Source: Candidatus Poribacteria bacterium (GTDB taxonomy: Bacteria; Abyssobacteria; SURF-5). From it: a stretch of DNA of 36,886 bases. A program made the position numbers and the translations under genes. The notes under the pieces were generated by a model. It searched no databases, had not been told where the DNA came from, and was given only the letters and a program-made list of their open reading frames with translations. Shown piece after piece: positions 13,867 through 36,886 of the stretch (the first letter of the stretch is position 1; each line of letters opens with the position of its first letter). The DNA lies in assembly GCA_016215705.1 (NCBI GenBank), contig JACRIR010000236.1, positions 1 to 36,886 of the forward strand, given 5' to 3'.

Positions 13867-14103
13867 TCATCTCTTGAATATCGTCGAAAAAATTACCGCG
13901 ATTGCGCCCAAAACGGCGCCGACGACCGTGCCTCCAATGAAGCCGATGAATCCGAGGCGTACAGCGTTCATGAGCAGGTCGAATGGTGTCTCGCCAAGCA
14001 TTTGATAGACACCGAACCCGGCTCCTCCGAGGGCGCCGAGCGTGGCGAACGTTTCCATCAGATGCACAAAAGCGGCTTTTCGAGTTCCCCTGTCAATCGC
14101 CAT
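13867..14103 (-). CDS. Small glycine-rich membrane protein, unknown function
   Basis: A 78-aa protein predicted to have two hydrophobic glycine-rich segments (TFATLGALGGAGFGVY and FIGFIGGTVVGAVLGAIAVI) with a positively charged C-terminus (FKR). The ATG at 14103 is supported by AAGGGAG about seven bases upstream; an in-frame extension to 14127 has no such support. Glycine-zipper-like helices suggest tight helix packing in the inner membrane. No family was recognised. It lies between the PilZ gene and the aminotransferase on the same strand. Confidence 0.65.
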   Translation of the reverse strand: MAIDRGTRKAAFVHLMETFATLGALGGAGFGVYQMLGETPFDLLMNAVRLGFIGFIGGTVVGAVLGAIAVIFSTIFKR

Positions 14104-14202
14104 GTTGGTCTCCCTTCGTATGGTCAAACTTCAGGGAAAATCATCCAGAGAGAGCCTTCGCTTATTCGGGAACGCCATGCCGCCAAGTTTCACCGAATAA
14201 GT

Positions 14203-15303
14203 TTAGAATTCTCTTGCCAGCTTCTGCAGCACCTCGATTCCTCGATGGATCGTTTCATCCGGCGCAGCAAAGGAGAGCCGGAAATGCGAATTCTTTTCGG
14301 AAAAGACATTGCCGGGAATGATCAGCAGGTTGTTTGCAATCGCTTTTTCGACAAACTTCGCGCCGTCGCCACCCGGCGCTTTGGGAAAAATGTAAAACGC
14401 GCCGCCCGGTTTCTCGACTTCAAAAAAACCTTTCAGCCCTTCATAAATGAGGTCGCGCTTCGCGCGATATTCGGCGATATGCCGACTGATATCAAGGTTG
14501 AGCGCAGCGACGCCCGCCTTCTGGGCAAAAGAAGGCGCGCACACGAAACTATACTGCTGAAGCATCTTCATCGACTCTATTATCTCTTGCGGTCCGGCGG
14601 CATAGCCTAGCCGCCAACCGGTCATGGCGGAAGACTTGGAAAACCCGTTGAGCAAAAGAGTCTTCGAGTAGTACCTGGCGAAAGTGTCGGGCGGTTGATC
14701 GTAAATAAAGTGATCGTATATCTCGTCGGTTATCACGAGCAGGTCGTGCCGACGAGCAAACTCGGCGATTCCGCGCAGTTCATCGGAGGAGTACACTCTC
14801 CCCGTTGGATTCGCGGGACTGTTTATGACGAGAAACTTCGTTCGTTTCGTGACTTTTTCCTCGAGCCTCTCCGGGAGCAATGCAAAATCAGGGTATGTAT
14901 CGACGAAAACCGGCTTCCCGCCGAAAAGGTTCGCCAGATGCTTGTACATTACAAAATAGGGATCGGGCAGGAGCACTTCGTCGCCCTGCTCGACGAGCGC
15001 GATGAATGCCAGCATGAGACCGCCGGAAACCCCGGAGGTTATCAGCACGTCCTCGAATTCGACGCCGCAGCGGGCGCGATAGTAGTCCTGTATCGCGCTG
15101 CGAAGCTCCGGAATTCCCTGCGTAACGGTGTATCGGTTGAATCCGTCGCGGATACTTTGAATGCCGACTTCCTTTATGGCTTCAGGAACATCAAAGTCGG
15201 GCTGTCCGATGCTAAGGTTTATGGGATTGTTGAGTTTGGACGCAAGATCAAAAACCTTCCGAATACCGGAGGAGTCGATCAGTTTCATTCGATTGGCAAG
15301 CAT
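14203..15303 (-). CDS. PLP-dependent class I/II aminotransferase
   Basis: This 366-aa fold-type I aminotransferase shows the substrate/PLP landmarks NLSIGQPDFDVP (about 29-40), NSPANPTGRVY (about 160-170), TDEIYDHFIY, and the Schiff-base motif GFSKSSAMTGWRLGY with Lys223. The late segment FRLSFAA carries the arginine that binds the substrate carboxylate. It transfers an amino group between an amino acid and a 2-oxo acid in the cytoplasm; aspartate, alanine or aromatic specificity cannot be decided. A GGGGA site lies shortly before the ATG. Upstream on the same strand is a coiled-coil lipoprotein gene, separated by 144 bp. Confidence 0.9.
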   Translation of the reverse strand: MLANRMKLIDSSGIRKVFDLASKLNNPINLSIGQPDFDVPEAIKEVGIQSIRDGFNRYTVTQGIPELRSAIQDYYRARCGVEFEDVLITSGVSGGLMLAFIALVEQGDEVLLPDPYFVMYKHLANLFGGKPVFVDTYPDFALLPERLEEKVTKRTKFLVINSPANPTGRVYSSDELRGIAEFARRHDLLVITDEIYDHFIYDQPPDTFARYYSKTLLLNGFSKSSAMTGWRLGYAAGPQEIIESMKMLQQYSFVCAPSFAQKAGVAALNLDISRHIAEYRAKRDLIYEGLKGFFEVEKPGGAFYIFPKAPGGDGAKFVEKAIANNLLIIPGNVFSEKNSHFRLSFAAPDETIHRGIEVLQKLAREF

Positions 15304-15447
15304 ATATTCCCCTGCTTTGTTTCCGGCGCTGACACCTTTGTAAATGGTGTAGGCGCTTCGCCCTTTCGAGCGGAGCGCCTATCAAGGAAAACGGAACATC
15401 ACGGACAAACCGGCATTTCGGGTCTGTCCCTGACTTGGCTTTTCTTC

Positions 15448-16059
15448 TCAGGATCTTTCCGCCTCGGGCGCTTGCTTCTCTTCTGCGCCCCCCTCTTTCT
15501 TCTCTTCGGTCGATGCGGCTGTGTAAACCGCCTGCTGCCGCCTTATCGCAGCCAACCGCTCCTCCTCCTCGCGCTCAAGTCGCCGTCTTCTTATGGCATA
15601 AGCGACAAGCACCACAATTATGATTATGATAATGGCAATTATCGTCTTGCCGCCGGTCCTTTGGGTACCTTTCGCGGACACCGGTCTTTCTATATATATT
15701 TCGCCGAGCGTGGACGCCGACCCTTGAATCGCGGACACTCTCTGTTCCAGCAGCTTGGCCTTTTCACGCAATGCGTTCGCTTGCTCGTCAAGCGAAATCG
15801 ACTTTCTCCTCAGTGAATCGGCTTCCTCATATAGATCATGGGCCGAATCCCCAAGGCTTTTGGCCTCGTTCGAGAGCGCGTCGGCTGCGCTTGCCACCGC
15901 TGCCTGCTCGATCTTCAACTCTTCCGACTCTTTCACGATGCGGGTAATGGCTATCTCCGTCGATTCGGCCTTCTGCTTTGCCGCCTTCCGGCCACATGCA
16001 ATCATTGCAAGGGAAACCACAAGCGCAACCGTGACCACCAGCGTAAGTTTTCTCATCAT
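15448..16059 (-). CDS. Coiled-coil lipoprotein-like membrane protein, unknown function
   Basis: A 203-aa protein starting MMRKLTLVVTVALVVSLAMIACG, which looks like a signal with a lipobox (Cys22, though Met at -3 is unusual). A helical region rich in Ala, Glu, Ser and Lys (about residues 35-125) is a probable coiled coil. A very isoleucine-rich transmembrane stretch (IIAIIIIIIVVLVAYAI) precedes RRRRLEREEEERL and a charged tail. A lipoprotein signal plus a second membrane span is odd. The alternative is two membrane helices with the coiled coil outside. The start is uncertain: the frame opens at 16131, ATGs exist at 16071 and 16059, and GAGAGG lies about 12 bases before 16059. Confidence 0.6.
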   Translation of the reverse strand: MMRKLTLVVTVALVVSLAMIACGRKAAKQKAESTEIAITRIVKESEELKIEQAAVASAADALSNEAKSLGDSAHDLYEEADSLRRKSISLDEQANALREKAKLLEQRVSAIQGSASTLGEIYIERPVSAKGTQRTGGKTIIAIIIIIIVVLVAYAIRRRRLEREEEERLAAIRRQQAVYTAASTEEKKEGGAEEKQAPEAERS

Positions 16060-21800: not shown

Positions 21801-22051
21801 GTAAATAATATGCGTTGGGTTCGCGCAAGAAACCACGACACGAATTAACGATTTTGGATGTTGGTAGTACGGAGAGCAGGGAGACTTTAGGAAGAAGAAC
21901 AGGAAGAATCTTCTTCGTGCCCTTCATGACCTCTGCGGTTGATGATTGGTGTAATGCGTTCCGTTCGCGTTCCAATCTTCGTTCCTACGGGAAACTGTTT
22001 TGTCTCCATTTAGTGGGGATGGACTTATCCATTTCAGTTAAGGAGAGGGCA

Positions 22052-25000
22052 ATGAAAGCTTTCAGAATCTCCCGAAACACCTCTGTTCAACTTCACTCCT
22101 TGGTTTTGCTCGTCGCGTTGCTCCTGCTCTTGAGCCCCGTGAGAGCCGTCTGCGGCACGTTCTCGGACGATTTCGAGGACGGCGCTCTCGGATCGTGGTG
22201 GTATGTATTTGACGGGAATGTCGCAGATGCTGATGAGGACAGCGGTGTCTTGCATCTCGCCGGACCCGACGCTGAAGCGAGATTGTGGGGAGATGCTCTC
22301 GCATTCGGCCTGACTGAAAACCTAACCGGTGACGTCGTAATAACGGCTGAATTCAAGGCGATCAATCCTCCTCCCTTTACTATTTATGGAATCCTGGTTG
22401 GCAGAACGGATCGGTCAGAACAGGTCGGAGTGGCAATCTATCATGATTATGACCCTGTTCTGAATCGTGGCACAGTAATGTCCTTTAGCGATGAGAACGT
22501 TTTCTCTCCGCCTGGTTATCCCGCGATAGAGGAGATTGATGTGCCTGAGTTCAATCCAGGCGATGTCGTAACGCTCAAGCTTGAAAAGATCGCTGGTGTT
22601 GTTATGGGATACTATAGCCTTAATGGTCTGCCGTATACACAAATTGGCTCCGCCTCGGCCACAATGCCCGACCCATTCGTTGCGGCAATCTGTGGTGAGA
22701 ACTGGCCGCCGCTGGACGTGTTATCGCCGGAACAAAGGACTCCTTACGATTTCCATGTGGACAATTTTGAAATTGCCGGCGATTCGGTTCCCAATATGAC
22801 AACTGGCGGTGGACCGGACACTTTTGCGGACGATTTCGAGATTATGGATACGTATCTGCTTCCAGTCAATCCTCTCACCAAGTGGCGGCAGGTAGGTATC
22901 GGTCCGAGCAGCTTTTTTGAGAGCAGCACTGGTGCGGGCGGAACCGGCCTGTCCGCGCGATTGATCGACACAGACACCGGCTTCCGAGCGCCGTCTCTCG
23001 CAGCCGACAATGCGCAATACTTTGACTTATCCTCTCTCGTTCTCGAGAGCGAGATCCGTCCCAATCTTGGGGATGACGGAATCTATACGGGGGCAGGCGG
23101 CGTTGGGTTCGGTGTCTACGACGATACTGGCGACCATATAAGCGCAGGCATGGGGACAATGTTATGGTACGACTGGGATATATCAAAGTGGCGTTTCGAG
23201 CTCTTTGACACGCATGAGTATGAAACGGATCGCCATATCATCCAGCGCGACGGTATCGAGCAGTCCGTCCCCGTCGATATTGATCCTACCATTTTCCATA
23301 CAATCAGGATGGAGAAGTCGGGTAATGATCTCTCGGCCGTTCTCGACCGGACATGGGCTTTGTCCGGGACCCCCCGTTTGCCCATAGACATTGCCGGCGC
23401 GGGCCTATACACTCAGATTGGCAACTATCCCGCCGACGCTGACTTTTCATTTGACAATTTCTCAATGAACGCTGAGCCGGACGACCGCCATGTGGTGTTT
23501 CAGGATGTGGACGTCGTCGAGGACACACGCGCCAATGAACTGTTCCCCACATGGTCGCGCGACGGCAAGAAGCTGGCATTTACGCAAAAGGAACTAGAGG
23601 ACCAGTGGGCATTGGACGTGTGGGTGAAACAAATCGATCCGCCACTGCCCGCAGTGAAGTGCTCATGGAGCCATGACCGCGCCGAAGTGTTTGCTGTCCC
23701 CGCGTTCAGCCCGGACTATAGTTATGTAATCTTCACTGCGACGAGATCTACACCTCCTTACGAATTGGAGATAAAAAGGGCCAAGGCGGACGGCACAGGC
23801 GGGGTCGAGACAGTATTCCATGAACCAGGAATCGGCCTGCGCGCGTACGATGTCAGCCCCGGGTTCAATCTTCTTGCGGGTACAAAAGAGGAGTATTCAC
23901 CCGGCGCCAACAAGGGGAATCTCTTTGCGCTGCGCATAACCGATGATGGACGCCGTGTGGCGGGGACAGAAAAACTGCTTACTGATTTCCCCGGTGGTTC
24001 ATGGGGAGCATATGACCCACACTTTGACGCCGATGCTGACCGAATAGTCTTCATGAGTATAGAGGTATCTACGCCACCCGGTCCCAGAAACTCCGACCTC
24101 TATGTGCTCAATGGGGTGCAGGATATTCTCAACGGGGTTACCGCTCCCCCGACATCCTACACCGATCCGAGGCTCGTGCTTCTTGCCACCGGCCCGAATT
24201 TTCAAGCTACAGGTCGTTTCTCCGGCGACGGTTCATATGTATATTATTGTGAGGACGTCAATGGGACTTTCGACGTGGATTACATGGGGGCAAACCCATG
24301 GTTGCCGTGGCTCGATTTGAGTTCGGGCGCGCATTGGGAGATATTCGCGGTCAATCCCGACACTCCGTCTGAGAAAATCAAACTGAATTATTACAGACCA
24401 TACAGCCAGGGTATTCTTGCCGCTTCACCGGACGGAACAAAGCTTGCCTTCATATCCGACAATCGCGCGGATCTCGATCCAGATATCATCGACTCTGACC
24501 TGTATATCGTCACGCTCAAAGTGAGAGAGGCCATCGTTGCGATAGCGGGCGGCGACATCGTTGACGGCAGCGGCACGACGCTCGGTGTCCCTGCCGCCTC
24601 GCTTTCCGAAGACACTACGATTTCGATCAAGACGCCCCTTCCCGGCGATATCCCCGCGCCCGACACACTTCCGGACGGGCTCAAGAACATAGCGTTTGCA
24701 CGCGTGATCGAGGCCGAATCGCCGACCGCCACGATTGACCCGCTCAACCCACCAATTCTGACGATTCAATACACGGATGAGGAGATGACGGGCCTTTCCG
24801 AACTGAGCCTCTGCATTTATGTTTTTAATGAAGATTTATCCAGGTGGGAGGCGCTTCCCGGCTGCATGGTTGACCCTGTCGCTAACACTGTATCCGCTCC
24901 CCTACCCCATCTCTCGATGTTTGTCGCCAGCGCCGCGCTCGACACCGACGGCGACGGAATACTGGACGACGGCGATTACAGTAATGTGGCCGGAGACAAT

Positions 25001-28000
25001 CCTTGCGCGGACGGCGTGACCGCAAATTGCGACGATAACTGCTTCGACCTCGCGAATCCGTTGCAGGAAGACTCCGATGCAGACCTCGCAGGAAACGCTT
25101 GTGATAATTGCCCTGCAATTTCCAATGCCAATCAGGCTGACGGCGACGTAGACGATGTTGGCGACGTTTGCGACAACTGCTCCGCGGTCTCCAATCCGAA
25201 CCAGGCCAATTTCGATGGCGATTCGATGGGTGACGCCTGCGACCCGGACATCGACGGCGACGGACTGACGAACGAGTTTGACTCGGATATCGACGGCGAC
25301 GGAGCGCTCAACCTCGAAGACGCTTTCCCATACGATTCGTCCGAATGGGCCGACAACGATAACGACGGCGTCGGTGATAATGCCGACCCGGACGACGACA
25401 ATGACAACGTCGCCGATATTGTCGACATCTGCCCGTTTGATCCCGCCAACGACATTGACGGCGACGGCCTCTGTGGCGATGTAGACAATTGTCCATCTGT
25501 CAATAATGCCGACCAAGCCGACAGTGATAGCGACGGCATCGGCGACGCCTGTGATTCCTGTAACGACATCGATGGAGATGGAGTGTGCGATGTTGTCGAC
25601 AATTGTCCGTCAGTCGCCAATTCTGATCAAGCGGATACAGATGGTGATGGTGTAGGTAATGCGTGTGAAGCGGCCGCCATTGAGCTAATATACGTTTTCC
25701 AAAGAGAGTGGGGCAGCCTTGGCTCCGGCCCCGGTCAGTTTGGCAGTGATTTGGGGCCGCGTGGAATTGCCGTTGATGAGGCCGGCAACGTCTACGTTGC
25801 GGATTACGGAAATCAACGCATTCAGAAGTTCTCAAGATGCGGCGCCTACTTGGGTGAATGGTCAACAGGTTACTTGGCCCAAATTTATTATTATGAAGGC
25901 TATCTCTATTGCCTGTACCCGCCTGGCGGAATCAAGAAATACGATACAAACGGAAACCTCATTTGGAACGTCCCTGTTTCTATCCCATCGTGGTCGGCTG
26001 GAATGACCATGGATAGCGACCACAATCTGCAGATTTCTATTGCGATTGATCGCAAAGTCGTTAAATACGACCTCAATGGCGCCTATCTTGGCGAATACCC
26101 TGCCACCAATGCCAACTACGACTATGCCGACAACAGGATTCACGCGTCTCCGGACGGCTACATATATATCAGAATAGGCGGCGAAGGCGGGGATATCAAG
26201 AGATATACGAACGCGGGAGTCGATACCGGCTGGAGTCGCGATATAGGGCTGGAGGATTTCCTCTATATTGACTCTTCCGGCAATTTCTACACCGGTTTGA
26301 ATGGGGTAGTGAATAAATACGATTCCAATTGGAATCTCTTGGCAACAGTCGGGTCCGGCGTTGGTTCGGGTCCCGGACAATTCGGCGCAACGTTCGGTCA
26401 AATGACAGAAGATTCCATTGGGAACCTGTACTTCTCCGACGGGCCGAATTACCGAATCGAGGTATTCGCCTCGGAGTGGCAGGGAACTTTCGGCGGTGCC
26501 CAAGAAGACGCAGCCTATGGCGCTGCGCCGACAGATGACGGCGGTTACGTCATTATTGGAGAAACCACTTCCTATGGCGCCGGTTCATATGACATATTGA
26601 TGATCAAGACTGACGCTGATGGAAATACGCAATGGTCGAAGACATTCGGCGGAACCGGCATCGAGAATGGCTTCAGTGTCGAGCAGACAGCCGACGGTGG
26701 CTATATTGTCGCTGGATTGACGACTTCTTTCGGCGCAGGATCATATGATGCATGGCTGATCAAGACCGATGGCAGCGGCGCTGAAGAATGGAGTAGAACC
26801 TTTGGTGGAGGTGGTTGGGACGAAGGGTATTCGGCCCAACAGACATCCGATGGCGGATACCTCATTCTGGGCCGCACAGATTCTTATGGCGCTGGGTCGC
26901 ACGATGCATGGCTGATCAAGACCGACCCAAGCGGGATCGAGGAGTGGAGCGAGACTTTCGGTGGCACAAACTGGGATGAGGCGCGCGACGTCAGGCAGAC
27001 GGGCGATGGCGGATATATCATCTCTGGATGGACGGAGTCTTTTGGAGCAGGTGGAAAAGACGCATGGCTTCTCAAGCTTGATGCCGACAGGAACTCGCAA
27101 TGGAGCAAGACCTTTGGCGGGTCTCTTTGGGATGCAGCAGGTGAAGTGCAATTGACTTCCACAGGCGGCTATATTACATGTGGATACACAGAATCCTACG
27201 GAAATTCAGGTTCGTATGACATATGGCTGATCGAAACCGACGCCATTGGGAATATGGTTTGGTCGCGGACATTTGGGGGCCCGGGCACCGAGCTCGGCGG
27301 TATGGTTCTAAAAACCGCTGACGGAGGCTATATTGTTGGCGGAGGCAGGGAACCCTACGGGTCGGCCGATGCCTTGTTGATAAAAACGGATGCCGCCGGA
27401 AACGAAGTTTGGAGCAGAGTCATAGGAGGAGCGGACTACGACACAATTCAAGACCTCATACAGGAAGGCAGCGAAAGCTATCTCGGCGTCGGTTGGACAC
27501 GTTCGTACGGCGCTGGGCTCTCGGACATTTGGCTCCTCAAGGTTAATCTGAATGAAGACAGTGATCTGGATGGCATATGTGGCGAGGTGGATAATTGCCC
27601 GTTTATTGCCAATATCGATCAATTTGATCTTGACAGCGACGGTTTGGGCGATGAGTGCGACAACTGCCCCAATACGGCCAATTCCGATCAGGCCGACATG
27701 GACAGCGACGGAATGGGTGACGTGTGCGATGACGACACGGATGGCGACCATTGTCCGAACGTCGCTACTGAGATAATGCCGGGGATAATGGTTCCTGCTG
27801 ATCCGAACCCCAACGTGTTCAGCCCGGATACCGATGCAGACTATCTGGGAGACGATTGTGACAACTGTCCGAATGTGGTGAATCCGGGTTGGGCTGATAC
27901 CGATACAGACGGCCTTGGCGATTCGTGCGACAACTGTCCCAATGCGGCGAATGCGGACCAGTCCGACATCGACGGCGACGGGATGGGTGACGTGTGCGAT

Positions 28001-31000
28001 GACGACACGGATGGCGACCATTGTCCGAACGTCGCTACTGAGATAATGCCGGGGATGATGGTTCCTGCTGATCCGAACCCCAACGTGTTCAGTCCGGATA
28101 CCGATGCAGACTATCTGGGAGACGACTGTGACAACTGTCCGAACGTGATGAATCCGGGTTGGGCTGACACCGATACAGACGGCCTTGGCGATTCGTGCGA
28201 CAACTGCCCGAGTGCGGCGAATGCGGACCAGTCCGACATCGACGGCGACGGGATGGGTGACGTGTGCGATGACGACACCGACGGCGACCATTGTCCGAAC
28301 GTCGCTACTGAGATAATGCCCGGGATGATGGTTCCTGCTGATCCGAACCCCAATGTGTTCAGTCCGGATACCGATGCAGACTATCTGGGAGACGACTGTG
28401 ACAACTGTCCGAATGTGGTGAATCCGGGTTGGGCTGACACCGATACAGACGGCCTTGGCGATTCGTGTGACAACTGTCCCAACGCTGCAAACGCCGACCA
28501 GTCAGACACAGATGGTGACGGTACTGGCGACGCCTGTGATTTTGAAGGAGGTGACTTCCGTGACGATTTTGAAGATGGAGTTCTTTCGTCGACTTGGGGT
28601 CTGAATCCTGACGGCACACAAAGACCCATGTGGCTGTATGATTGGGTCGCGCCAGGAATCACAGTGACTGAGGAAGGCGGCGAAATACGATTCTCCGGCA
28701 CTCCATCTGTTTGGCAAGACGCACACTTGACCACCTTTGGCTTCGACGGCACAGGCTCTGTCGACGCTTCCGTCGATTTCAGAAGAGCAGATGGTGGCAC
28801 GAGTCCGTGTGTCAATCTGCTGATTGGGTCTCGTGTGCACGAACAAGACAGCGAGTCTCCCTTCCTCTTTGTTGGAGTGGCGCTGTGCGAAAGCGGATAC
28901 TACCGACTCTACAATACGATCACCGAATGGAATTCCATCTGGCTGCGGCCTGCTTTTGGAGATGAGCAGAATGTTTCCCACAGACTGAGGGTCACTTACG
29001 ATGGCGCAACGGAAACAGTGACCTACTATGTGGACGGAGTCTCTTACTATAGCGAAACCGTTCGTATGGGCAAGAAGCTGTGCGCCACTCTGCGCGTCGG
29101 CGGCGGCTACTCTTACCGTGACGTCCGGTTCGACAACTTCGTTTTGTTTGCGCAACGAGCGGTCCAGCCGCCCGTGGATTCCCTCGATGTCACACTCGGA
29201 GAAATCTCTGAGCTTGAACCGACCGAGCAAGATACCATTTTCTCGGCATGGTCACCCGACGGTAAGAAGGTTGCTTACCATGTCCGCAGCGCTACCAACT
29301 CGACTCTGTGGAACATCTGGGTGAAGGAGGTAAATTCGACAGCGCCGGCATATCCGCTCACCACGGACTCCGACAATGTCAAATACTACACCCACCTGTG
29401 CTGGACACCTGACGGCTCCGGCGTCATCTTCACATCAGGGTGGGGAAACGCTACAGATACCTATTTAAGAATCGCAAACTCGGACGGTTCCGGAACCCGT
29501 GAACTGCTCAGGGAGAACGGCGTCGCATATGCGTCTCCCGACGTGGCCAACGGTCCATTCGGGAGGCAGATGATCTTCACAAAGAACGCCAACCTCTATT
29601 CGATTGCCATTGAGGAGAATGGCGAGCTTGCCGCTCAACCGGGCGACGCAATCCAGTTGACAAATATTCCCAGCGCAGAAATCTACATGCCCCGGTGCTC
29701 GCATGACGGCGACAAGATCGCCTTCGTCCGCTACTTTGATTGGTCCGACAGCGATATCTACCTGCTGCAGGGAGCAAACGATATCCACTCGAATGCATCG
29801 CCTGTCGTTACTTCGTATTTTGACACGCGCATGCTGCCGGTGAGCGACAATGCAAACGTCGCAGGCACTCCCGCAGTTTCTCCGGACGGAAAGTATGTGT
29901 ACTTCACCGAAGATACGAGCGGGAACTACAACATCGACTATGACCTCTCGGGACAAACATGGGCGCTGAAATTCCCGCACACAAACTTCGACCTGTTCTA
30001 TGCGAACGTGGAATCCGGCGCTCCCGTCACCCCACGGCGGATAACCAGTGATTCCACAAACCAGGGTAATTTGAGCGCTTCTCCCGACGGCACAATGCTG
30101 GCGTTCATTGATGACAGCGACCGGGACGGCGACACTGAATTCGACGGAAACATGTATATCGGCACGCTGGTGAAATCGCAGGTTGTTCCGGCAGGAAACG
30201 AAGCGATCATCGAAGATGCGTCAGGCTGCACAATGACGATCCCAGCCGGCGCGCTGCCCGTTGAAACTGAAATAACGATTCAGACCCCGTTCCCTGGCGC
30301 CGAACCATCGGTAGACACTTTGCCGGATGAAACATTGCTCGTGCTTGCCCGTGAATTCGGGCCGCCCGGAACGACATTCACCGAGCCGATCACTATTGTG
30401 ATGACTTACACGGATGAGCAAGTTGAGGCTGAGGGCCTCATCGAGAGCACACTCCAAATCGCGGTCTATCGCAACGGAGCGTGGGAGCCAATCGGCGGAG
30501 TCGTTGACACATTAGGAAACACAGTGACTGCGCAAATTGACCATTTCAGTGTCTTTGGGCTATATGGTGAGTTCATAGACTGCAACAATAACGGCGTCCC
30601 CGATCCTACCGAACCCGATTCCGATGGCGACGGCCTGATTGACGGCTGCGACAACTGTCCAAACGCAGTCAATCCGGGACAGGAAGATTGCGACGGGAAT
30701 GGAATCGGCGACGCTTGCGACACCGTCAACCCGGCCGCAATCGACTCGGACTGCGACGGCGTGGACGACAACTGCAACGGCGTGACAGACGAAGGATATT
30801 CTCCAACCGCTACAATCTGCGGGACCGGCGAATGCGCTTCCACCGGCCAATTGCTCTGTGTTAGCGGCGCTCTGCAAGATACGTGTGTGTCCGGCTCGCC
30901 GACCGGCGCCGACGCAGATTGCGATGGATTGGACCAGAACTGCAATGGCGCGGCGGATGATGCCTATATCCCAATTCCGACATCGTGCGGAATAGGCGAA

Positions 31001-34000
31001 TGCGCGTCCACCGGTCAGATGATCTGCGTCGGCGGCGCATTGCAGGACACCTGCACTGTCGGTTCACCGACCGGCGCTGACGACGACTGCGACGGCCTCG
31101 ATCAGAACTGTAACGGTCTTGCCGATGATTCTTATGCTCCGACGCCGACAAGCTGTGGCACAGGTGAGTGCGCAGCGAGCGGCCAGATGATCTGCTCCAA
31201 TGGCAGCCTGCAGGACACGTGTGTCTCCGGAACTCCCACAGACGAAGTGTGTGATGGTTTGGATAACGATTGTGACGGTGTTGCGGATGATGGACTGGTT
31301 TCTACCCCCACGACTTGCGGAATAGGCGAGTGCGCGTCCACCGGCATCCGAAACTGCACGGGCGGACAATGGGTTGACACCTGTACACCAGGGTCTCCGA
31401 CCGGAACCGATAACGACTGCGACGGTCTCGACCAGAACTGCGACGGAACAGCGGATGATGGCTATGCTCCGACGCCCACAACCTGCGGAGTAGGCGCGTG
31501 CGCGTCCACTGGCCAAATGCTCTGCAGCGGCGGCAGCCTGCAAGACACGTGCGTCGCCGGAACCCCCACCGGCGAAATCTGCGACGGGCTTGACAACGAC
31601 TGCAATGGGAGCGTTGATGACGGCCTCGACGCTGATACGGACGGAGTCTCGGATTGCATCGACAATTGTCCGTCAATATGGAATGCGGGTCAATCTGACA
31701 TTGACTCCGACGGCGTCGGCGACGCGTGTGATACCGACACATTCTTTGATGACTTCAATGACCCAACGACGTATATGCCTCCTGTCAACCCGAACACCAG
31801 ATGGCGACAAATCGGGACTGCGTTTGGAACGTTCTCGACTGACGCGGGTTTCGGTGGAACCGGGTACTCGGCGCGAATGATTGATGCGGATTCAAGCTTC
31901 GATATGCCGGTGCTTGGGGCCGACAATGGACAATACTTCGATCTTTCGTCTGCAACCGTTCAGGCCCTGGTGCGCGCGAACAGCATCTACGGCAGCGGCA
32001 TCGTCGGATTCGGTGTAAACGATGACGCAGGCGAGGGTCTGTGTGGCGGTATCGCGGCGGGATTAGTGAATAGTATAAATACCGGCGGCGCCTGGGTCTT
32101 CGTGCTTTTCGACATCAACGATTACGATACCGCGCCGCATGGTATCGCCTTTATGCCGCTGGCGCCGTTTGGGATCAATCCATTCGAGTTCCATCAGATC
32201 AAGGTGGAGAGCCTGAACGGACAGGTCACGGCAACACTCGACGAAACATGGACATTGAGCGGCGCTCCTCGTCTGGCCATAGATGTTGCGGGCACGGGAA
32301 TCGGTCCCAACGATCTAGGCGATTTCTCGTTCGACAACTTCTCGATGAAAGGTCAGCCGGACAACCGCCATGCCGTGTTCAAGGACGTAGACATAGTCGA
32401 GGACACCCCTGCGGACGAAATCTTCCCGTCGTGGTCGCGCGACGGAAAGAAGATCGCCTACATTCAAGACGAGATGGACACTGGTTCGTGGAACGTGTGG
32501 GTCAAGCAGATTGATCCGCCGACGCCCGCGGTCAAGTGCACGCAGAATTCGGATAAGACTTTCATTTATGCGGTGCCGGCATTTAGCCCGGACTACAGCC
32601 ACGTAATCTTCACTGGATTCAACACCGACTACTCACGGCTCGAACTCAAGAGAGCCAATGCCGACGGCACGGGCGGAGTGGAAACAATTCTCACTGAAGT
32701 CGGCGCCAATTACTGGGGTTACGACATCAGTCCATCTTTGAACCTTCTTGTCGGCGCGAAAGAGTCGTCCTCCGGGACCATTTCAAACCTGTACTCCGTT
32801 CAAGTTACACCTGACGGGCTTCCTGTTGCCGGGACGTATAAGCCCCTCACCGAGTTCCCGGCCGGATCGCCTAGGGTTTACGACCCGCACTTCGACGCAA
32901 CGTGTGACCGCGTGGCCTTTATGAGTTACGTGAACCCGCCGACGGATACGGACCTTTACGTGCTCAACGGCGTGCAGGATATTTTGAGTGGAGTCACGAA
33001 TCCACCGACCTCCTATTCCGATTCCAGACTCACCCTTATCGCCACGGGCCCGAATGCTCAGGCAACCCCGCGATTCTCCGGAGACGGAACACTTGTCTAC
33101 TACTGCGAAGATGTCAACGGGACTTTCAATTACGACTATTTCGGTAATAATCCGGGACTCCCGTGGCTCACCTCATTGTCCGGCGCTCACTTTGAGATTT
33201 TCGCAGTCAATACTCAGAATCCGGCCGAAAGGATTAAACTCAATTACTATAGGCCGTACACTCAGGGAGTCCTGTCTGCTTCGCCGGATGGAACCATGCT
33301 CGTGTTCTCTTCCGACAAGCGCGAAGACGGCGACGGCGTCGTTGATGCCGACCTGTATGTTGTCACGCTGAAAGTGAAGGAGGAGATAGAGGCTTCGACG
33401 GGTGGACAAATTGTTGACGGCAGCGGTACGACTCTCGATATTCCGGGTGGCTCGGTATCCGAGGATACCGTTATATCCGTGGAGACTCCTCTCCCCGGCG
33501 CCATACCCTCTCCCGATACTCTGCCCGGCGGCATGCAGAATATCGCGCTCGCGCGAGTGGTCGAGGCGGAATCACCGACTGCGACCATTAATCCGAATAA
33601 TCCGCCAATACTTACAATTCATTACACGGAAGAGGAAATAGCAGGCCTGCATGAGCTTTCGTTGCGCATCTACGTATTCAACGAAGATACTCTGAGCTGG
33701 GAGGCAATCGGACAATGCCCCGACAATCCGGCTCAAGACTGCACCGTGATTGATCCTGTCGCGAATACTATCTCTGCGCCATTGCCGCACCTGTCTATGT
33801 TCGCCGTCAGCGGCGCAGTGGATACAGATGGCGACGGAATATTGGATGACGGCGATTACAGCAACGTGGTAGGCGACAACCCGTGCGCGGACGGCGTGAT
33901 CGCGAACTGTGACGATAACTGTTTTGACCTCGCAAACGCCGCGCAGGAAGACTCCGACGCAGACTTCATCGGTGACGGTTGTGACAATTGCCCGAATGCG

Positions 34001-36886
34001 CCGAATGCCGACCAGTCGGATGCTGACATTGACACTGTCGGCGACATTTGCGACAACTGCCCTGCAGTATCCAATCCCAATCAGGCTAACATCGACGGCG
34101 ATACGATGGGCGACGTCTGTGACCCTGACATCGACGGCGACGGCATAGCTAACGAGTCTGACCCGGATATTGACGGCGACGGCGTTCTCAACGGTGACGA
34201 CGCATTCCCATACGATCCGACCGAAACGGCCGACACCGATAATGACGGCATTGGCAACAACGCAGACCCTGACGACGACAATGACGGCGTCGCGGATATC
34301 GCGGATATCTGTCCCCTCGATCCCGCCAACGACATCGACGGTGACGGCGTTTGTGGCGATGTCGACAACTGCACGACAGTCGGCAATCCGGATCAAGCGA
34401 ACACAGATGGTGATGCTTTCGGCAATGCCTGCGATATATGCCCGAACGACCCGGACAACGACGCGGATAGCGACGGCATATGCGGCGACGTGGATGCATG
34501 CCCGAACGATCCGAACAACGATATCGACAGTGACGGCGTTTGTGGCGATGTCGATAATTGCCCGACGATTGTCAATTCTAATCAGGCGGACCCCGATGGC
34601 GACGGCATAGGCTCTGCTTGTGACGACGTGGAGTCGCTCGGCTCCGACTACTCGGCCGGTTGTCTCGTCATCCGGAACGGACAGACTTTGGTCACCAATG
34701 GCTACGACATGAATATCGGCCCAATATGCGGAATCGTGATCGAAGCCGGTGGAATCCTGGATGCAAGCTCCGGCGCAGGAGGCGATTCAATCATTACCGA
34801 CTCAGCGAGCGGTACAGGCCCATCAAGCGCGTGGCGCTGTGACGGAAGGTTCGTCGCAGGGGCAAGCACGGTGGTCTTCAACGGCGTAGCCGCCTCGGAA
34901 ATCCAGGTCTTTATGCCGCAGATAAACAGCTTCTTCAGGCTCATTTCAGACGCCGACAGTGTGGCGGCGCCGGGCACAATCTACGTCACGGATGGGCTCG
35001 AGGTGAGAAGCGGCTCGTTCCAGGTCGGTAATGGCTCTACATTCCACGACGTGTTGGTTGCTCCCGCAAGTCTGCTGCAGCCCGGCGGCCAAATCAATGT
35101 TAGTGGCGACTGGATAAACAATGGCAGCTTTGTCAACGGTAGCGTGTCGTTCACAGGCACGGGAGACTTATTTGCCGGCGCTTCTCATTTCAACAAACTC
35201 ATTGTGGCATCCGGCGTACGCACTGTGCTCGGAGACACCTTGTCCGTTGACGGCGCACTCAGGGTGCAGATGAGCGGCGCTCTGCAGAGAACGTCAGGAG
35301 GGTTGACTCTTCAAACGAACTCCACCGTTGGTATTGATAGTGGAGGCGCGTTTGTTCTCGAAGGAAATAACCAATGGATAGTGGGCGCAGGCTCGACTGT
35401 GACCATTCAAGACGGAGCCGTCGCAACGCTCCACGGGACCGATGCCGGCAACATGCTGACCCTCAGGTCCTCCGTGGCCGGAACCGCCTGGCATCTAATA
35501 GACCTGACCATGATGTCAAGCAATCCATCCGTCACGTACGCTGACGTGCGGGATTCTGACGCCGGCTCGGGGAGCCTCGTGTTCGCCGAACACTCGATTG
35601 ACTCCGGCAACAACCTGAACTGGGTGTTCTTGGTTGATAGTGACGGCGACGGCATCTACGACTATTACGATAATTGCGACGCCGTTTCCAATCCGGATCA
35701 GGCGGATGCGGACACTGACACCGTTGGCAATGTCTGTGATAATTGCCCGGCAGTTCCGAATCCGGACCAGGCGGACATGGACAGTGATGGAATTGGCAAT
35801 GCATGCGACCCATGGCCAAATGACCCGCAGAACGATATCGACGGCGACGGCGTGTCCGGCGAGATAGACAACTGCCCGACAGTGGCTAATCCGGGGCAGC
35901 AGGACTGCAATAGTAACGGATTGGGCGATGCCTGCGACTCGATAAATCCGACCGCAGATGATTCCAACTGCGACAATATAGATCAGAACTGCAATGGTGT
36001 CGCAGACGACGGTTATGTCCCAACGCCGACCTCGTGCGGTGTCGGCGCATGCGCTTCCACTGGCCAGATGGTTTGCGTAGCTGGCAGCTTGCAAGACACT
36101 TGCTCGGCAGGTTCACCTACCGGCGCGGATGACGAGTGCGACGGTCTCGATCAGAACTGCAACGGTGTTGCTGACGACGCATATGTTCCGACTGCCACTT
36201 CCTGCGGAGTAGGCGAATGCGCGGCTACCGGCCAGATGGTCTGTGTCGCCGGCAGCTTGCAGAATACGTGCTCCGCTGGTTCGCCGACAGGCGCGGATGA
36301 TGACTGCGACGGCCTCGACCAGAACTGCAACGGCGTTGCTGACGACGCTTATGTTCCAACAGCCACAAACTGCGGAGTAGGCGAATGCGCGTCCACCGGT
36401 GAGATGATCTGCGTTGCCGGCAGCCTGCAAGACACTTGCGCTGCCGGTTCGCCGACTGGCGCGGATGACGAATGCGATGGCCTTGACCAGAACTGCAATG
36501 GCGTTGCTGACGATGCCTACGCTCCGACAGCAACAAGCTGCGGAGTAGGTGAATGCGCCTCCGCCGGCCAGATGGTTTGTGTCGCCGGTGCTCTGCAAGA
36601 CACTTGCTCGGCTGGTTCGCCGACAGGCGCTGACGACGAATGCGATGGCCTTGACCAGAACTGCAATGACGTAGCTGACGATGCCTATGTTCCGACAGCA
36701 ACAAGCTGCGGAGTAGGCGAATGCGCGGCTACCGGCCAGATGATTTGCGTTGGCGGTACATTGCAGGATACTTGCACGCCTGGGGCTCCATCAGCCGAAA
36801 TCTGTGACAGCATGGATAACGATTGTGACGGTCAGGCTGATGAAGGGGTGACACAAACATTCTATCGGGATGCTGACGGTGACACC
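22052..36886 (+). CDS. Giant secreted multidomain repeat protein, 3'-truncated by the window end
   Basis: One frame without a stop spans 4,945 codons and is still open at the last base. A signal peptide (SLVLLVALLLLLSPVRA) follows the start, which has AGGAGAGGG just upstream. Order by residue: jellyroll/LamG-like (36-250 and 257-480), PD40/TolB-like propeller (483-820), ZU5-like (822-962), TSP3 repeats (962-1208), NHL-type propeller (1209-1478), seven ~52-aa W-S-x-T-F-G-G repeats (1479-1832), TSP3 (1833-2165), jellyroll (2166-2380), PD40 (2387-2703), ZU5-like (2709-2840), TSP3, MopE-like array (~2899-3197), jellyroll (3229-3432), PD40 (3440-3775), ZU5-like (3776-3921), TSP3 (to 4194), beta-rich segment (to 4527), TSP3, MopE-like array (4634 on). 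Its acidic D-x-D-x-D-G motifs imply extensive calcium binding at the cell surface or outside. Function (adhesion, matrix) is inference, and the C-terminal anchor is not visible. Confidence 0.88.
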   Translation, partial: MKAFRISRNTSVQLHSLVLLVALLLLLSPVRAVCGTFSDDFEDGALGSWWYVFDGNVADADEDSGVLHLAGPDAEARLWGDALAFGLTENLTGDVVITAEFKAINPPPFTIYGILVGRTDRSEQVGVAIYHDYDPVLNRGTVMSFSDENVFSPPGYPAIEEIDVPEFNPGDVVTLKLEKIAGVVMGYYSLNGLPYTQIGSASATMPDPFVAAICGENWPPLDVLSPEQRTPYDFHVDNFEIAGDSVPNMTTGGGPDTFADDFEIMDTYLLPVNPLTKWRQVGIGPSSFFESSTGAGGTGLSARLIDTDTGFRAPSLAADNAQYFDLSSLVLESEIRPNLGDDGIYTGAGGVGFGVYDDTGDHISAGMGTMLWYDWDISKWRFELFDTHEYETDRHIIQRDGIEQSVPVDIDPTIFHTIRMEKSGNDLSAVLDRTWALSGTPRLPIDIAGAGLYTQIGNYPADADFSFDNFSMNAEPDDRHVVFQDVDVVEDTRANELFPTWSRDGKKLAFTQKELEDQWALDVWVKQIDPPLPAVKCSWSHDRAEVFAVPAFSPDYSYVIFTATRSTPPYELEIKRAKADGTGGVETVFHEPGIGLRAYDVSPGFNLLAGTKEEYSPGANKGNLFALRITDDGRRVAGTEKLLTDFPGGSWGAYDPHFDADADRIVFMSIEVSTPPGPRNSDLYVLNGVQDILNGVTAPPTSYTDPRLVLLATGPNFQATGRFSGDGSYVYYCEDVNGTFDVDYMGANPWLPWLDLSSGAHWEIFAVNPDTPSEKIKLNYYRPYSQGILAASPDGTKLAFISDNRADLDPDIIDSDLYIVTLKVREAIVAIAGGDIVDGSGTTLGVPAASLSEDTTISIKTPLPGDIPAPDTLPDGLKNIAFARVIEAESPTATIDPLNPPILTIQYTDEEMTGLSELSLCIYVFNEDLSRWEALPGCMVDPVANTVSAPLPHLSMFVASAALDTDGDGILDDGDYSNVAGDNPCADGVTANCDDNCFDLANPLQEDSDADLAGNACDNCPAISNANQADGDVDDVGDVCDNCSAVSNPNQANFDGDSMGDACDPDIDGDGLTNEFDSDIDGDGALNLEDAFPYDSSEWADNDNDGVGDNADPDDDNDNVADIVDICPFDPANDIDGDGLCGDVDNCPSVNNADQADSDSDGIGDACDSCNDIDGDGVCDVVDNCPSVANSDQADTDGDGVGNACEAAAIELIYVFQREWGSLGSGPGQFGSDLGPRGIAVDEAGNVYVADYGNQRIQKFSRCGAYLGEWSTGYLAQIYYYEGYLYCLYPPGGIKKYDTNGNLIWNVPVSIPSWSAGMTMDSDHNLQISIAIDRKVVKYDLNGAYLGEYPATNANYDYADNRIHASPDGYIYIRIGGEGGDIKRYTNAGVDTGWSRDIGLEDFLYIDSSGNFYTGLNGVVNKYDSNWNLLATVGSGVGSGPGQFGATFGQMTEDSIGNLYFSDGPNYRIEVFASEWQGTFGGAQEDAAYGAAPTDDGGYVIIGETTSYGAGSYDILMIKTDADGNTQWSKTFGGTGIENGFSVEQTADGGYIVAGLTTSFGAGSYDAWLIKTDGSGAEEWSRTFGGGGWDEGYSAQQTSDGGYLILGRTDSYGAGSHDAWLIKTDPSGIEEWSETFGGTNWDEARDVRQTGDGGYIISGWTESFGAGGKDAWLLKLDADRNSQWSKTFGGSLWDAAGEVQLTSTGGYITCGYTESYGNSGSYDIWLIETDAIGNMVWSRTFGGPGTELGGMVLKTADGGYIVGGGREPYGSADALLIKTDAAGNEVWSRVIGGADYDTIQDLIQEGSESYLGVGWTRSYGAGLSDIWLLKVNLNEDSDLDGICGEVDNCPFIANIDQFDLDSDGLGDECDNCPNTANSDQADMDSDGMGDVCDDDTDGDHCPNVATEIMPGIMVPADPNPNVFSPDTDADYLGDDCDNCPNVVNPGWADTDTDGLGDSCDNCPNAANADQSDIDGDGMGDVCDDDTDGDHCPNVATEIMPGMMVPADPNPNVFSPDTDADYLGDDCDNCPNVMNPGWADTDTDGLGDSCDNCPSAANADQSDIDGDGMGDVCDDDTDGDHCPNVATEIMPGMMVPADPNPNVFSPDTDADYLGDDCDNCPNVVNPGWADTDTDGLGDSCDNCPNAANADQSDTDGDGTGDACDFEGGDFRDDFEDGVLSSTWGLNPDGTQRPMWLYDWVAPGITVTEEGGEIRFSGTPSVWQDAHLTTFGFDGTGSVDASVDFRRADGGTSPCVNLLIGSRVHEQDSESPFLFVGVALCESGYYRLYNTITEWNSIWLRPAFGDEQNVSHRLRVTYDGATETVTYYVDGVSYYSETVRMGKKLCATLRVGGGYSYRDVRFDNFVLFAQRAVQPPVDSLDVTLGEISELEPTEQDTIFSAWSPDGKKVAYHVRSATNSTLWNIWVKEVNSTAPAYPLTTDSDNVKYYTHLCWTPDGSGVIFTSGWGNATDTYLRIANSDGSGTRELLRENGVAYASPDVANGPFGRQMIFTKNANLYSIAIEENGELAAQPGDAIQLTNIPSAEIYMPRCSHDGDKIAFVRYFDWSDSDIYLLQGANDIHSNASPVVTSYFDTRMLPVSDNANVAGTPAVSPDGKYVYFTEDTSGNYNIDYDLSGQTWALKFPHTNFDLFYANVESGAPVTPRRITSDSTNQGNLSASPDGTMLAFIDDSDRDGDTEFDGNMYIGTLVKSQVVPAGNEAIIEDASGCTMTIPAGALPVETEITIQTPFPGAEPSVDTLPDETLLVLAREFGPPGTTFTEPITIVMTYTDEQVEAEGLIESTLQIAVYRNGAWEPIGGVVDTLGNTVTAQIDHFSVFGLYGEFIDCNNNGVPDPTEPDSDGDGLIDGCDNCPNAVNPGQEDCDGNGIGDACDTVNPAAIDSDCDGVDDNCNGVTDEGYSPTATICGTGECASTGQLLCVSGALQDTCVSGSPTGADADCDGLDQNCNGAADDAYIPIPTSCGIGECASTGQMICVGGALQDTCTVGSPTGADDDCDGLDQNCNGLADDSYAPTPTSCGTGECAASGQMICSNGSLQDTCVSGTPTDEVCDGLDNDCDGVADDGLVSTPTTCGIGECASTGIRNCTGGQWVDTCTPGSPTGTDNDCDGLDQNCDGTADDGYAPTPTTCGVGACASTGQMLCSGGSLQDTCVAGTPTGEICDGLDNDCNGSVDDGLDADTDGVSDCIDNCPSIWNAGQSDIDSDGVGDACDTDTFFDDFNDPTTYMPPVNPNTRWRQIGTAFGTFSTDAGFGGTGYSARMIDADSSFDMPVLGADNGQYFDLSSATVQALVRANSIYGSGIVGFGVNDDAGEGLCGGIAAGLVNSINTGGAWVFVLFDINDYDTAPHGIAFMPLAPFGINPFEFHQIKVESLNGQVTATLDETWTLSGAPRLAIDVAGTGIGPNDLGDFSFDNFSMKGQPDNRHAVFKDVDIVEDTPADEIFPSWSRDGKKIAYIQDEMDTGSWNVWVKQIDPPTPAVKCTQNSDKTFIYAVPAFSPDYSHVIFTGFNTDYSRLELKRANADGTGGVETILTEVGANYWGYDISPSLNLLVGAKESSSGTISNLYSVQVTPDGLPVAGTYKPLTEFPAGSPRVYDPHFDATCDRVAFMSYVNPPTDTDLYVLNGVQDILSGVTNPPTSYSDSRLTLIATGPNAQATPRFSGDGTLVYYCEDVNGTFNYDYFGNNPGLPWLTSLSGAHFEIFAVNTQNPAERIKLNYYRPYTQGVLSASPDGTMLVFSSDKREDGDGVVDADLYVVTLKVKEEIEASTGGQIVDGSGTTLDIPGGSVSEDTVISVETPLPGAIPSPDTLPGGMQNIALARVVEAESPTATINPNNPPILTIHYTEEEIAGLHELSLRIYVFNEDTLSWEAIGQCPDNPAQDCTVIDPVANTISAPLPHLSMFAVSGAVDTDGDGILDDGDYSNVVGDNPCADGVIANCDDNCFDLANAAQEDSDADFIGDGCDNCPNAPNADQSDADIDTVGDICDNCPAVSNPNQANIDGDTMGDVCDPDIDGDGIANESDPDIDGDGVLNGDDAFPYDPTETADTDNDGIGNNADPDDDNDGVADIADICPLDPANDIDGDGVCGDVDNCTTVGNPDQANTDGDAFGNACDICPNDPDNDADSDGICGDVDACPNDPNNDIDSDGVCGDVDNCPTIVNSNQADPDGDGIGSACDDVESLGSDYSAGCLVIRNGQTLVTNGYDMNIGPICGIVIEAGGILDASSGAGGDSIITDSASGTGPSSAWRCDGRFVAGASTVVFNGVAASEIQVFMPQINSFFRLISDADSVAAPGTIYVTDGLEVRSGSFQVGNGSTFHDVLVAPASLLQPGGQINVSGDWINNGSFVNGSVSFTGTGDLFAGASHFNKLIVASGVRTVLGDTLSVDGALRVQMSGALQRTSGGLTLQTNSTVGIDSGGAFVLEGNNQWIVGAGSTVTIQDGAVATLHGTDAGNMLTLRSSVAGTAWHLIDLTMMSSNPSVTYADVRDSDAGSGSLVFAEHSIDSGNNLNWVFLVDSDGDGIYDYYDNCDAVSNPDQADADTDTVGNVCDNCPAVPNPDQADMDSDGIGNACDPWPNDPQNDIDGDGVSGEIDNCPTVANPGQQDCNSNGLGDACDSINPTADDSNCDNIDQNCNGVADDGYVPTPTSCGVGACASTGQMVCVAGSLQDTCSAGSPTGADDECDGLDQNCNGVADDAYVPTATSCGVGECAATGQMVCVAGSLQNTCSAGSPTGADDDCDGLDQNCNGVADDAYVPTATNCGVGECASTGEMICVAGSLQDTCAAGSPTGADDECDGLDQNCNGVADDAYAPTATSCGVGECASAGQMVCVAGALQDTCSAGSPTGADDECDGLDQNCNDVADDAYVPTATSCGVGECAATGQMICVGGTLQDTCTPGAPSAEICDSMDNDCDGQADEGVTQTFYRDADGDT
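26487..27545 (+). repeat. Seven ~52-residue propeller-like protein repeats
   Basis: Within the giant gene, units of about 150-160 bases encode the pattern TFGG...DGGYIVxGxT-S-GAG-D-WLIKTD-G-W. The T-F-G-G starts lie near 26489, 26642, 26801, 26954, 27110, 27269 and 27419 (the last as VIGG). The number and strand pattern suggest one closed beta-propeller. Units have diverged at the DNA level, so they are old. Confidence 0.75.
27695..28504 (+). repeat. Three near-identical 270-bp tandem repeats (TSP3-type)
   Basis: Units start at 27695, 27965 and 28235 and differ at only a few percent of positions. Each codes for 90 residues with two C-D-N-C-P thrombospondin type 3 motifs and the segment ATEIMPGxMVPADPNPN. 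Such low divergence indicates recent tandem duplication or gene conversion, and the copy number may vary between strains or be miscounted in assembly. Confidence 0.85.
30745..31640 (+). repeat. MopE-like Cys/Asp-rich repeat array 1 (five units)
   Basis: Each unit couples the putative metal-binding motif C-D-G-x-D-x-N-C-x-G-x-x-D-D to a four-cysteine segment (C-G-x-G-x-C, x-x-G-x-x-x-C, D-T-C-x-x-G). Two units use the variant CDGLDNDCDG or CDGLDNDCNG. The array follows a short TSP3 stretch and precedes the fourth jellyroll domain. Units are diverged. Confidence 0.75.
35970..36886 (+). repeat. MopE-like repeat array 2, 168-bp period, cut by the window end
   Basis: Units of exactly 168 bases (56 residues, six cysteines each) recur: the cysteine of the D-E/D-C-D-G-L-D-Q-N-C motif lies at 36137, 36305, 36473 and 36641. 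They are much more alike than those of array 1, suggesting recent expansion. The last visible unit changes to CDSMDNDCDG and the sequence then leaves the repeat (VTQTFYRDADGDT). Confidence 0.8.

What the first reader, a model, noticed from the sequence alone, without database searches (positions are those of the whole stretch)
22052..36886. At least 4,945-codon open frame for a giant secreted calcium/metal-binding protein
Codon-by-codon reading from 22052 to the final base shows no stop, although the gene is broken up in appearance by hundreds of antisense open frames. It occupies 40% of the window and is unfinished. The combination of jellyroll, PD40 propeller, ZU5-like, TSP3, NHL propeller, a further propeller and MopE-like arrays in a single chain is one I do not know as a described family.
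Basis: partly seen in the sequence, partly recalled or inferred. Interest (0 to 1): 0.75.

Follow-up and report, generated by a model that had tools for sequence, protein, structure and literature searches.

The report
Giant secreted protein with self-cutting domains
An uncultured deep-subsurface bacterium (Candidatus Abyssobacteria) carries a gene for a huge, very acidic, probably exported calcium-binding protein of about 5,200 amino acids, built from repeated propeller modules, each ending in a domain that by fold and motif looks able to cut its own chain.

Summary
The open frame is real: ATG 22052 (AAGGAGAGGG just upstream) runs 4,945 codons without a stop to 36886, the physical end of contig C178. 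It breaks inside a 168-bp repeat. Contig C153 overlaps the window end by exactly 141 identical bases and carries the frame on to a stop, giving at least 5,203 aa (546 kDa, pI 4.05) that ends in HYR + PxKF domains. A collinear relative in Ca. Abyssobacteria SURF_17 (two overlapping contigs, 4,254 aa) argues against a chimera. Substitution is purifying. The frame holds three copies of a jellyroll-like/TolB-like-propeller/ZU5 module, joined by Ca-type TSP3 spacers, an NHL propeller, another repeat propeller and Cys-rich 56-aa arrays. Each ZU5 domain ends in H-[LF]-S, in the turn between its last two strands. The predicted fold matches ankyrin ZU5 and GAIN domains, and the motif lands on published cleavage-site positions of BAI2, BAI3, rat NLRP1 and UNC5b, though not CARD8. 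I predict self-cleavage at L954|S955, F2832|S2833 and L3914|S3915, into four non-covalently held pieces. Bacterial ZU5 self-processing was predicted in 2012, so this is a new variant of a known kind. Cleavage, Ca binding, export and function are untested.

The parts
22052..36886 (+). Giant ORF, aa 1-4945 of a predicted >=5,203 aa; the rest is on contig C153 (L030:5657-6574, - strand)
22040..22049 (+). AAGGAGAGGG, Shine-Dalgarno-like, just upstream of ATG 22052
   Evidence: by eye
22052..22147 (+). Signal-peptide-like N-terminus (basic start, long hydrophobic run, SPVRA-VCG); SURF_17 has a like N-terminus ending SPAAGA-CG
   Evidence: by eye; no signal-peptide predictor available
22148..22816 (+). 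First beta-rich, jellyroll-like domain (aa 33-255)
   Evidence: conserved in SURF_17 at 58-59%; no Pfam or NCBIfam hit
22817..24940 (+). Module M1: jellyroll-like (256-478), TolB-like PD40 propeller (480-822), ZU5 (826-963)
24908..24916 (+). M1 H953-L954-S955, predicted self-cleavage site
24938..25666 (+). TSP3 spacer 1 (aa 963-1205)
25673..26473 (+). NHL propeller (aa 1208-1474); most conserved part against SURF_17 (81%)
26474..27550 (+). Second repeat propeller (about 50-aa 'FGG..DGGYIV.G' units, aa 1475-1833)
   Evidence: self-similarity; weak hits
27551..28546 (+). TSP3 array with 3.2 near-identical 270-bp tandem copies at 27647-28508
28547..30574 (+). Module M2 (divergent, about 30% to M1): jellyroll-like, PD40 propeller, ZU5 (aa 2709-2841)
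30542..30550 (+). M2 H2831-F2832-S2833, predicted self-cleavage site
30584..31735 (+). TSP3 plus five 56-aa Cys-rich MopE-like repeats (Cys motifs at aa 2923, 2979, 3035, 3089, 3145)
31736..33820 (+). Module M3 (62% to M1; 68% to SURF_17 M3): jellyroll-like, PD40 propeller, ZU5 (aa 3777-3923)
33788..33796 (+). M3 H3913-L3914-S3915, predicted self-cleavage site
33821..34621 (+). TSP3 spacer (aa 3924-4190)
34628..35593 (+). Repetitive, perhaps beta-solenoid domain (aa 4193-4514), no family hit
   Evidence: no hits; fold by eye only
35594..36886 (+). TSP3, then 168-bp/56-aa Cys-rich MopE-like array in which the contig breaks

Best explanation
The gene encodes a giant Sec-exported, strongly acidic extracellular or cell-surface protein of Ca. 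Abyssobacteria, at least 5,203 aa. A recurrent module (jellyroll-like domain, TolB-like propeller, ZU5/GAIN-type domain) is strung on Ca-dependent TSP3 rods, with further propellers and Cys-rich arrays between, and a HYR + PxKF domain at the C-terminus. The propellers and jellyrolls would supply binding surfaces and the TSP3 rods reach and Ca-dependent stiffness. The three ZU5 domains would each cut the chain at H-[LF]|S by serine-driven N-to-O acyl shift, so that four pieces (about 104, 200, 113 and 130 kDa) stay together through the last beta strand and can separate under force or after Ca loss. Shown: the frame, its continuation onto C153, module triplication, predicted fold and motif register, conservation, a collinear relative. 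Inferred: export, Ca binding, actual cleavage, adhesive or matrix role.
For: Frame. C-terminus by 141-bp exact overlap; PxKF 77.1 bits against cut-off 35, HYR 39.1 against 21.7. Collinear relative in SURF_17. Selection: dN 0.16-0.41 with dS 1.7-2.7 or saturated. Module triplication. Propeller: TolB-like 2ojh Z 25.3, rmsd 3.0, 260 aligned. ZU5 alone: pLDDT 83.0, pTM 0.77, HFS (123-125) between strands 116-123 and 126-132. Foldseek top 18 all ankyrin/UNC5b/ZO1 ZU5 chains, then CD97 and BAI3 GAIN and NLRP1. VIA-align: AnkB Z 12.2 (rmsd 3.4, 121 aligned), BAI3 GAIN Z 9.5 (3.0, 122), CD97 Z 9.4 (2.9, 121), BAI2 Z 8.6 (2.9, 121), rat NLRP1 Z 7.6 (3.9, 118), UNC5b Z 7.3 (4.0, 125). Register, counting back ungapped from the last aligned residue: model H123 = BAI2 H910 and BAI3 R855, F124 = UNC5b L677, S125 = rat NLRP1 S969, the published cleavage-site positions. 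H and S are 2 of 18 invariant columns of 172 in 12 of 12 Abyssobacterial ZU5 domains (mean identity 48%).
Against: No cleavage, Ca-binding or localisation data. The register argument assumes no gap in the last ten aligned residues, and by the same count CARD8 is off by nine. The CxH thiol motif that Zhang et al. 2012 give for the ZU5 superfamily is absent: the residue two before H is L, I or another non-Cys residue. Outside this group H-F-[ST] is present in 7 of 12 readable ZU5-type hits (5 of the 7 from one genome) and absent in 5, one of which reads K-F-S. Ankyrin ZU5, the best fold match, is not known to cleave (recalled). Only 2 of the 5 module ZU5 copies match Pfam ZU5 at E<=1. The whole-module model is weak (pLDDT 63.7). 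The C153 join passes through a repeat, so copy number and even the partner contig remain inference.
Confidence: 0.5

Rival explanations
1. The same giant Ca-type surface or matrix protein, but the ZU5 domains are only structural (as in ankyrin); H-[LF]-S is kept because it packs the last turn, and the chain stays whole.
For: Best fold matches are ankyrin ZU5 domains; 5 of 12 readable non-Abyssobacterial relatives lack the histidine motif; the CxH motif of Zhang et al. is absent.
Against: H and S, the two residues the chemistry needs, are invariant in 12 of 12 Abyssobacterial copies while the residue between varies L/F and neighbours vary; the register falls on experimentally known cleavage-site positions.
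Confidence: 0.4
2. Assembly artefact: the frame is a misjoin of several tandem genes (TSP3, propeller and MopE-like proteins are common in this genome) across repeats.
For: Repeats at 27647-28508 and 35984-36783; many related genes in the same genome; the contig does break in a repeat.
Against: SURF_17, a separate assembly, has the N-terminal ~1,500 aa, M3 and the C-terminal 240 aa in the same order; within the window the modules sit in unique, non-identical sequence with no stop or frame change.
Confidence: 0.06
3. An extracellular enzyme or enzyme carrier: sialidase-, lactonase- or S9-peptidase-like propellers acting on polymers, with TSP3 as scaffold.
For: The propeller aligns with sialidases, a lactonase and a gluconolactonase at Z about 19-21, rmsd 3.2-3.6, and Foldseek ranks S9 peptidases and TolB first.
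Against: Propellers of many families align at that level; sequence families found are PD40/TolB-like only; no catalytic domain family was hit above its cut-off. Active-site residues were not examined.
Confidence: 0.08

Closest known systems
ZU5/GAIN/FIIND cis-autoproteolytic domains (PIDD HF|S, aGPCR GPS H-X-S/T, NLRP1/CARD8 SF|S)
   Same: Predicted fold; H-[LF]-S in the turn before the last strand; register on published cleavage-site positions
   Different: Bacterial, extracellular, three per chain, each closing a propeller module; no UPA or receptor partner seen; no CxH; cleavage not shown
Bacterial ZU5 autopeptidases of polymorphic toxins and large surface proteins (Zhang et al. 2012, PMC3482391; passages read)
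   Same: ZU5 with beta-propellers in large secreted proteins; the authors suggest that self-processing may be general among bacterial surface proteins
   Different: There at the N-terminus of RHS toxins with SpvB; here internal, repeated, on TSP3 rods, with no toxin domain or RHS found by Pfam or NCBIfam
MtsC (NF047638), TSP3 cell-cohesion MYXO-CTERM protein
   Same: Scores 487 bits against a cut-off of 350 through nine TSP3 stretches
   Different: No MYXO-CTERM found; ends in PxKF; more than ten times the size of the 428-position model; other domains
TolB (TIGR02800)
   Same: Propeller fold, TolB-like 2ojh Z 25.3
   Different: 60 bits against a cut-off of 343; part of a giant chain
MopE-type metal-binding motif (PF11617)
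   Same: Related Cys/Asp-rich repeats; 49.9 bits in the C153 part
   Different: Window arrays stay below the cut-off; metal not known
Giant bacterial surface proteins, e.g. Giant1-5 of Apilactobacillus kunkeei (PMC12863079, start of abstract in search listing)
   Same: Giant extracellular repeat proteins of several thousand aa
   Different: No ZU5 cleavage modules mentioned in the part of the abstract seen; not compared by sequence here

Membership tests
ZU5/GAIN cis-autoproteolytic domain | ZU5/GAIN beta-sandwich fold | tested here: met
   Pfam ZU5 26.8 bits for M2, cut-off 21
ZU5/GAIN cis-autoproteolytic domain | H-X-S/T (PIDD HF|S) between the last two strands | tested here: met
   3 of 3 in the window, 12 of 12 in Abyssobacteria
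ZU5/GAIN cis-autoproteolytic domain | C-terminal CxH thiol motif as given by Zhang et al. 2012 | tested here: not met
   no Cys two residues before H in any of 12 copies; so not claimed as a thiol-type member, only as a serine, PIDD/GPS-like candidate
ZU5/GAIN cis-autoproteolytic domain | Actual self-cleavage | not testable with these tools
   needs protein
MtsC (NF047638) | Model score over cut-off | tested here: met
   487 against 350, by TSP3 repeats
MtsC (NF047638) | MYXO-CTERM sorting signal | tested here: not met
   NCBIfam scan of the last 305 aa gives PxKF and two sub-cut-off hits, no MYXO-CTERM; depends on the C153 join
Omp28-related selenoprotein (NF045500) | Selenocysteine (in-frame TGA) | tested here: not met
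   278.9 against 200 by 22 repeat stretches, but no in-frame stop codon in 4,945 codons
Cu-binding MopE motif (PF11617) | Pfam gathering score | tested here: inconclusive
   below cut-off in the window, above it in the C153 part
TolB | TIGR02800 equivalog cut-off | tested here: not met
   60 against 343
Type IX secretion cargo | Por_Secre_tail C-terminal domain (TIGR04183) | tested here: not met
   0 matches in the own genome; 9 of 21 searched genomes have it
PxKF domain proteins (NF038114) | C-terminal domain over cut-off | tested here: met
   77.1 against 35; depends on the C153 join

The most novel reading that the evidence does not exclude
A bacterial surface giant that cuts itself at three built-in, GAIN/ZU5-type break-points, one at the end of each propeller module, so that the working molecule is a non-covalent chain whose links can part under load or when calcium is lost: a bacterial counterpart of the adhesion-GPCR cleavage module, multiplied by internal duplication.
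Probability: 0.4. Interest if true: 0.72.

Novelty: new variant of a known kind. Interest (0 to 1): 0.52.

Why it matters
If the ZU5 domains cleave, this would be a clear test case for a 2012 prediction that self-processing is general in bacterial surface proteins, and for a bacterial origin of the ZU5 domains of animal death and receptor proteins. It also shows how a candidate-phylum bacterium builds a half-megadalton extracellular protein by duplicating one module, and that such genes are cut by contig ends in draft genomes: four of the five PxKF C-termini found in the three family genomes lie on frames that start at a contig end. Equivalog names such as MtsC or Omp28 selenoprotein would mislead annotation here.

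Tried and rejected
Rejected: chimera (collinear SURF_17 relative); type IX cargo; MtsC and Omp28 selenoprotein names; TolB identity. Big_5 (PF13205) in the own genome: none. Shared neighbourhood with SURF_17: tblastx between its upstream stretch and the window's found nothing; a weak tblastx match beyond the C-terminus of C139 and C153 was not borne out by protein comparison, where they share only the giant's C-terminus. So orthology rests on the protein alone. G001 has no full module, only standalone relatives at 30-40% and one PxKF end.

Led nowhere: whole-module AF2 model too weak for the jellyroll; sequence search of PDB with the ZU5 profile found nothing convincing; Pfam/NCBIfam silent on the jellyrolls and aa 4193-4514. 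Fold search of the module mostly tested its propeller. Paper searches without a hit: TSP3 + giant + MopE, Myxococcus + TSP3 + cohesion, ZU5 + thrombospondin + propeller + bacterial; PxKF gave only unrelated papers; MtsC gave unrelated papers among those listed; Hydrogenedent/giant/thrombospondin gave unrelated papers among the 10 listed of 1,195. PMC6121073 (term search of the text only) does not mention thrombospondin, adhesion or giant genes. PMC11361709 only cites the Abyssubacteria paper.

Not done: coordinates of the models were not available, so side-chain geometry at H-x-S, the aromatic partner described in PMC13062082 and propeller active sites were not examined. PxKF and C153 parts were not folded, because the folding tool names only window sequence and certain loci as allowed; I stayed with window and L062.

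Full report
Observation. The frame is there. One search gives one + frame open to the last base; the plausible start is ATG 22052 behind AAGGAGAGGG, hence 4,945 codons. By base composition the chance of no stop is about 10^-86, and codon-position composition changes at the ATG. The window is the whole of contig C178 (36,886 bases), so the gene is cut by an assembly end, in a 168-bp repeat.

The missing end. A search of the same genome (5.47 Mb, 270 contigs) with the last 200 bases finds C153, 100% identical over query bases 60-200 and ending exactly there; the overlap is exactly 141 bases, as left by a k-mer assembler (my inference). The frame continues on C153 and stops after 5,203 codons in all: 546 kDa, pI 4.05. 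The C-terminus has HYR (39.1 bits) and MopE (49.9) by Pfam and the PxKF domain NF038114 (77.1 bits). Because the join crosses a repeat, 5,203 is a lower bound and the partner an inference. A hairpin lies 17-52 bases after the stop.

Organism and relative. The one scan of named genomes (46 loci, own genome left out) gave a single full-length relative of the module: Ca. Abyssobacteria SURF_17 (QZKI01000030.1), a contig of the same 14,309-base length as G002:C111. The other 45 loci match only part of the query, at 21-34% identity. The window genome is in the same family as that genome by the tool's kinship. SURF_17's frame starts with a similar signal-like stretch and also runs off its contig; its contig C139 overlaps by 99 bases and ends it at 4,254 aa. 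The two proteins are collinear: aa 28-1000, 1201-1494, 2451-3199 and 4014-4254 of SURF_17 match 29-994, 1199-1494, 3176-3917 and 4963-5203 of the window, and differ between. dN is 0.16-0.41, dS 1.7-2.7 or saturated, in six comparisons of orthologous or duplicated stretches. This speaks against a chimera and for function.

Anatomy. Self-comparison and alignments show one module three times: jellyroll-like, PD40 propeller, ZU5. M1 and M3 are 62% identical; M2 is about 30% to M1. The propeller is TolB-like (2ojh Z 25.3, rmsd 3.0, 260 aligned). Between modules lie TSP3 rods (21 Pfam stretches; 47 DxDxDG), an NHL propeller, a second repeat propeller and 56-aa Cys-rich arrays. Three 270-bp near-identical copies mark recent growth.

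The ZU5 domains. Each ends in H-[LF]-S: H953, H2831, H3913 (these are 3 of 8 H-x-[ST] in the chain). The M2 domain folded alone gives pLDDT 83.0 and pTM 0.77, with HFS in the turn between the last two strands. Its nearest solved structures are ankyrin, UNC5b and ZO1 ZU5, adhesion-GPCR GAIN domains and NLRP1/CARD8 FIIND. Counting back from the last aligned residue without gaps, H123/F124/S125 fall on BAI2 910-912, BAI3 855-857, rat NLRP1 967-969 and UNC5b 676-678. PMC13062082 gives H910-L911-S912 and R855 as site positions, PMC8081665 gives F968|S969, and PMC3210808 equates UNC5b L677 with CARD8 F296 and gives PIDD's HF/S; passages of these papers were read, not the whole. For CARD8 the same count is off by nine. 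H and S are invariant in all 12 Abyssobacterial ZU5 domains examined (3 window, 2 SURF_17, 7 standalone); L060, matched by its propeller only, has no ZU5 and was left out. Outside, of 12 hits with readable downstream sequence (11, one more cut off by its contig and left out; plus L061), 7 have H-F-[ST], five of them from one genome, and 5 do not.

Interpretation. I predict three serine-type self-cleavage sites, giving four pieces (954, 1,878, 1,082, 1,289 aa). CARD8 pieces stay associated after cutting, and the paper says the same of PIDD-like proteins, so a non-covalent chain is likely if cutting occurs. Zhang et al. 2012 (PMC3482391, passages read) already proposed that ZU5 self-processing may be general in bacterial surface proteins; their CxH feature is not met here. 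So the idea is not new, but the repeated, module-closing arrangement in a half-megadalton Ca-type protein was not found in my paper searches.

Export. Secretin matches: 5 in the genome, no type IX tail; the 2018 description reports a Sec system and no complete set for the six well-characterised secretion systems in the SURF genomes (PMC6121073, passage). The outer-membrane step is open.

Verdict. Real, unusual in size and layout, most parts of known kinds; one sharp, cheap test (self-cleavage of a 133-aa domain) would decide the interesting claim.

Noticed in passing
L056, L058, L059 (G000:C56, G002:C1, G000:C86): Standalone relatives begin with an anti-sigma-like zinc finger and a transmembrane stretch, followed by FecR, PD40 propeller and ZU5 with H-F-S close to the C-terminus (Pfam shown for L056; others by alignment and eye). 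Self-cleaving FecR-type anti-sigma factors are known from memory only; a ZU5 version would be of interest.
   Followed up: partly
L032 (G000:C16) 945-7508 and 7773-15455, L034 (C221): Further TSP3/MopE giants of 2,187 and 2,560 aa lie in tandem, and share with C221 a Cys-containing C-terminal region of about 180 aa (CCPDFGI...RSQT) that no Pfam family covers in the C221 protein.
   Followed up: partly
G000:C153, C187, C74; G002:C139; G001:C66: All five PxKF C-termini in the three family genomes lie near contig ends; four sit on frames that start at a contig end, so such giants are easily broken in drafts.
   Followed up: partly
window 27647-28508: 3.2 copies of a 270-bp unit, 93% alike: recent tandem growth of a TSP3 rod.
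   Followed up: no
L115, L125, L127, L128, L130 (genome G094): ZU5-type domains with 'SGDPIM' repeats inserted before H-F-[ST]; an odd repeat insertion in several proteins of one genome.
   Followed up: no
L061 (genome G030): A ZU5-like region whose turn reads K-F-S instead of H-F-S; a natural candidate for a non-cleaving variant.
   Followed up: no
window 22052-36886: NCBIfam equivalog models MtsC and Omp28-related selenoprotein both pass their cut-offs on repeats alone, so automatic naming of this gene would be wrong.
   Followed up: yes
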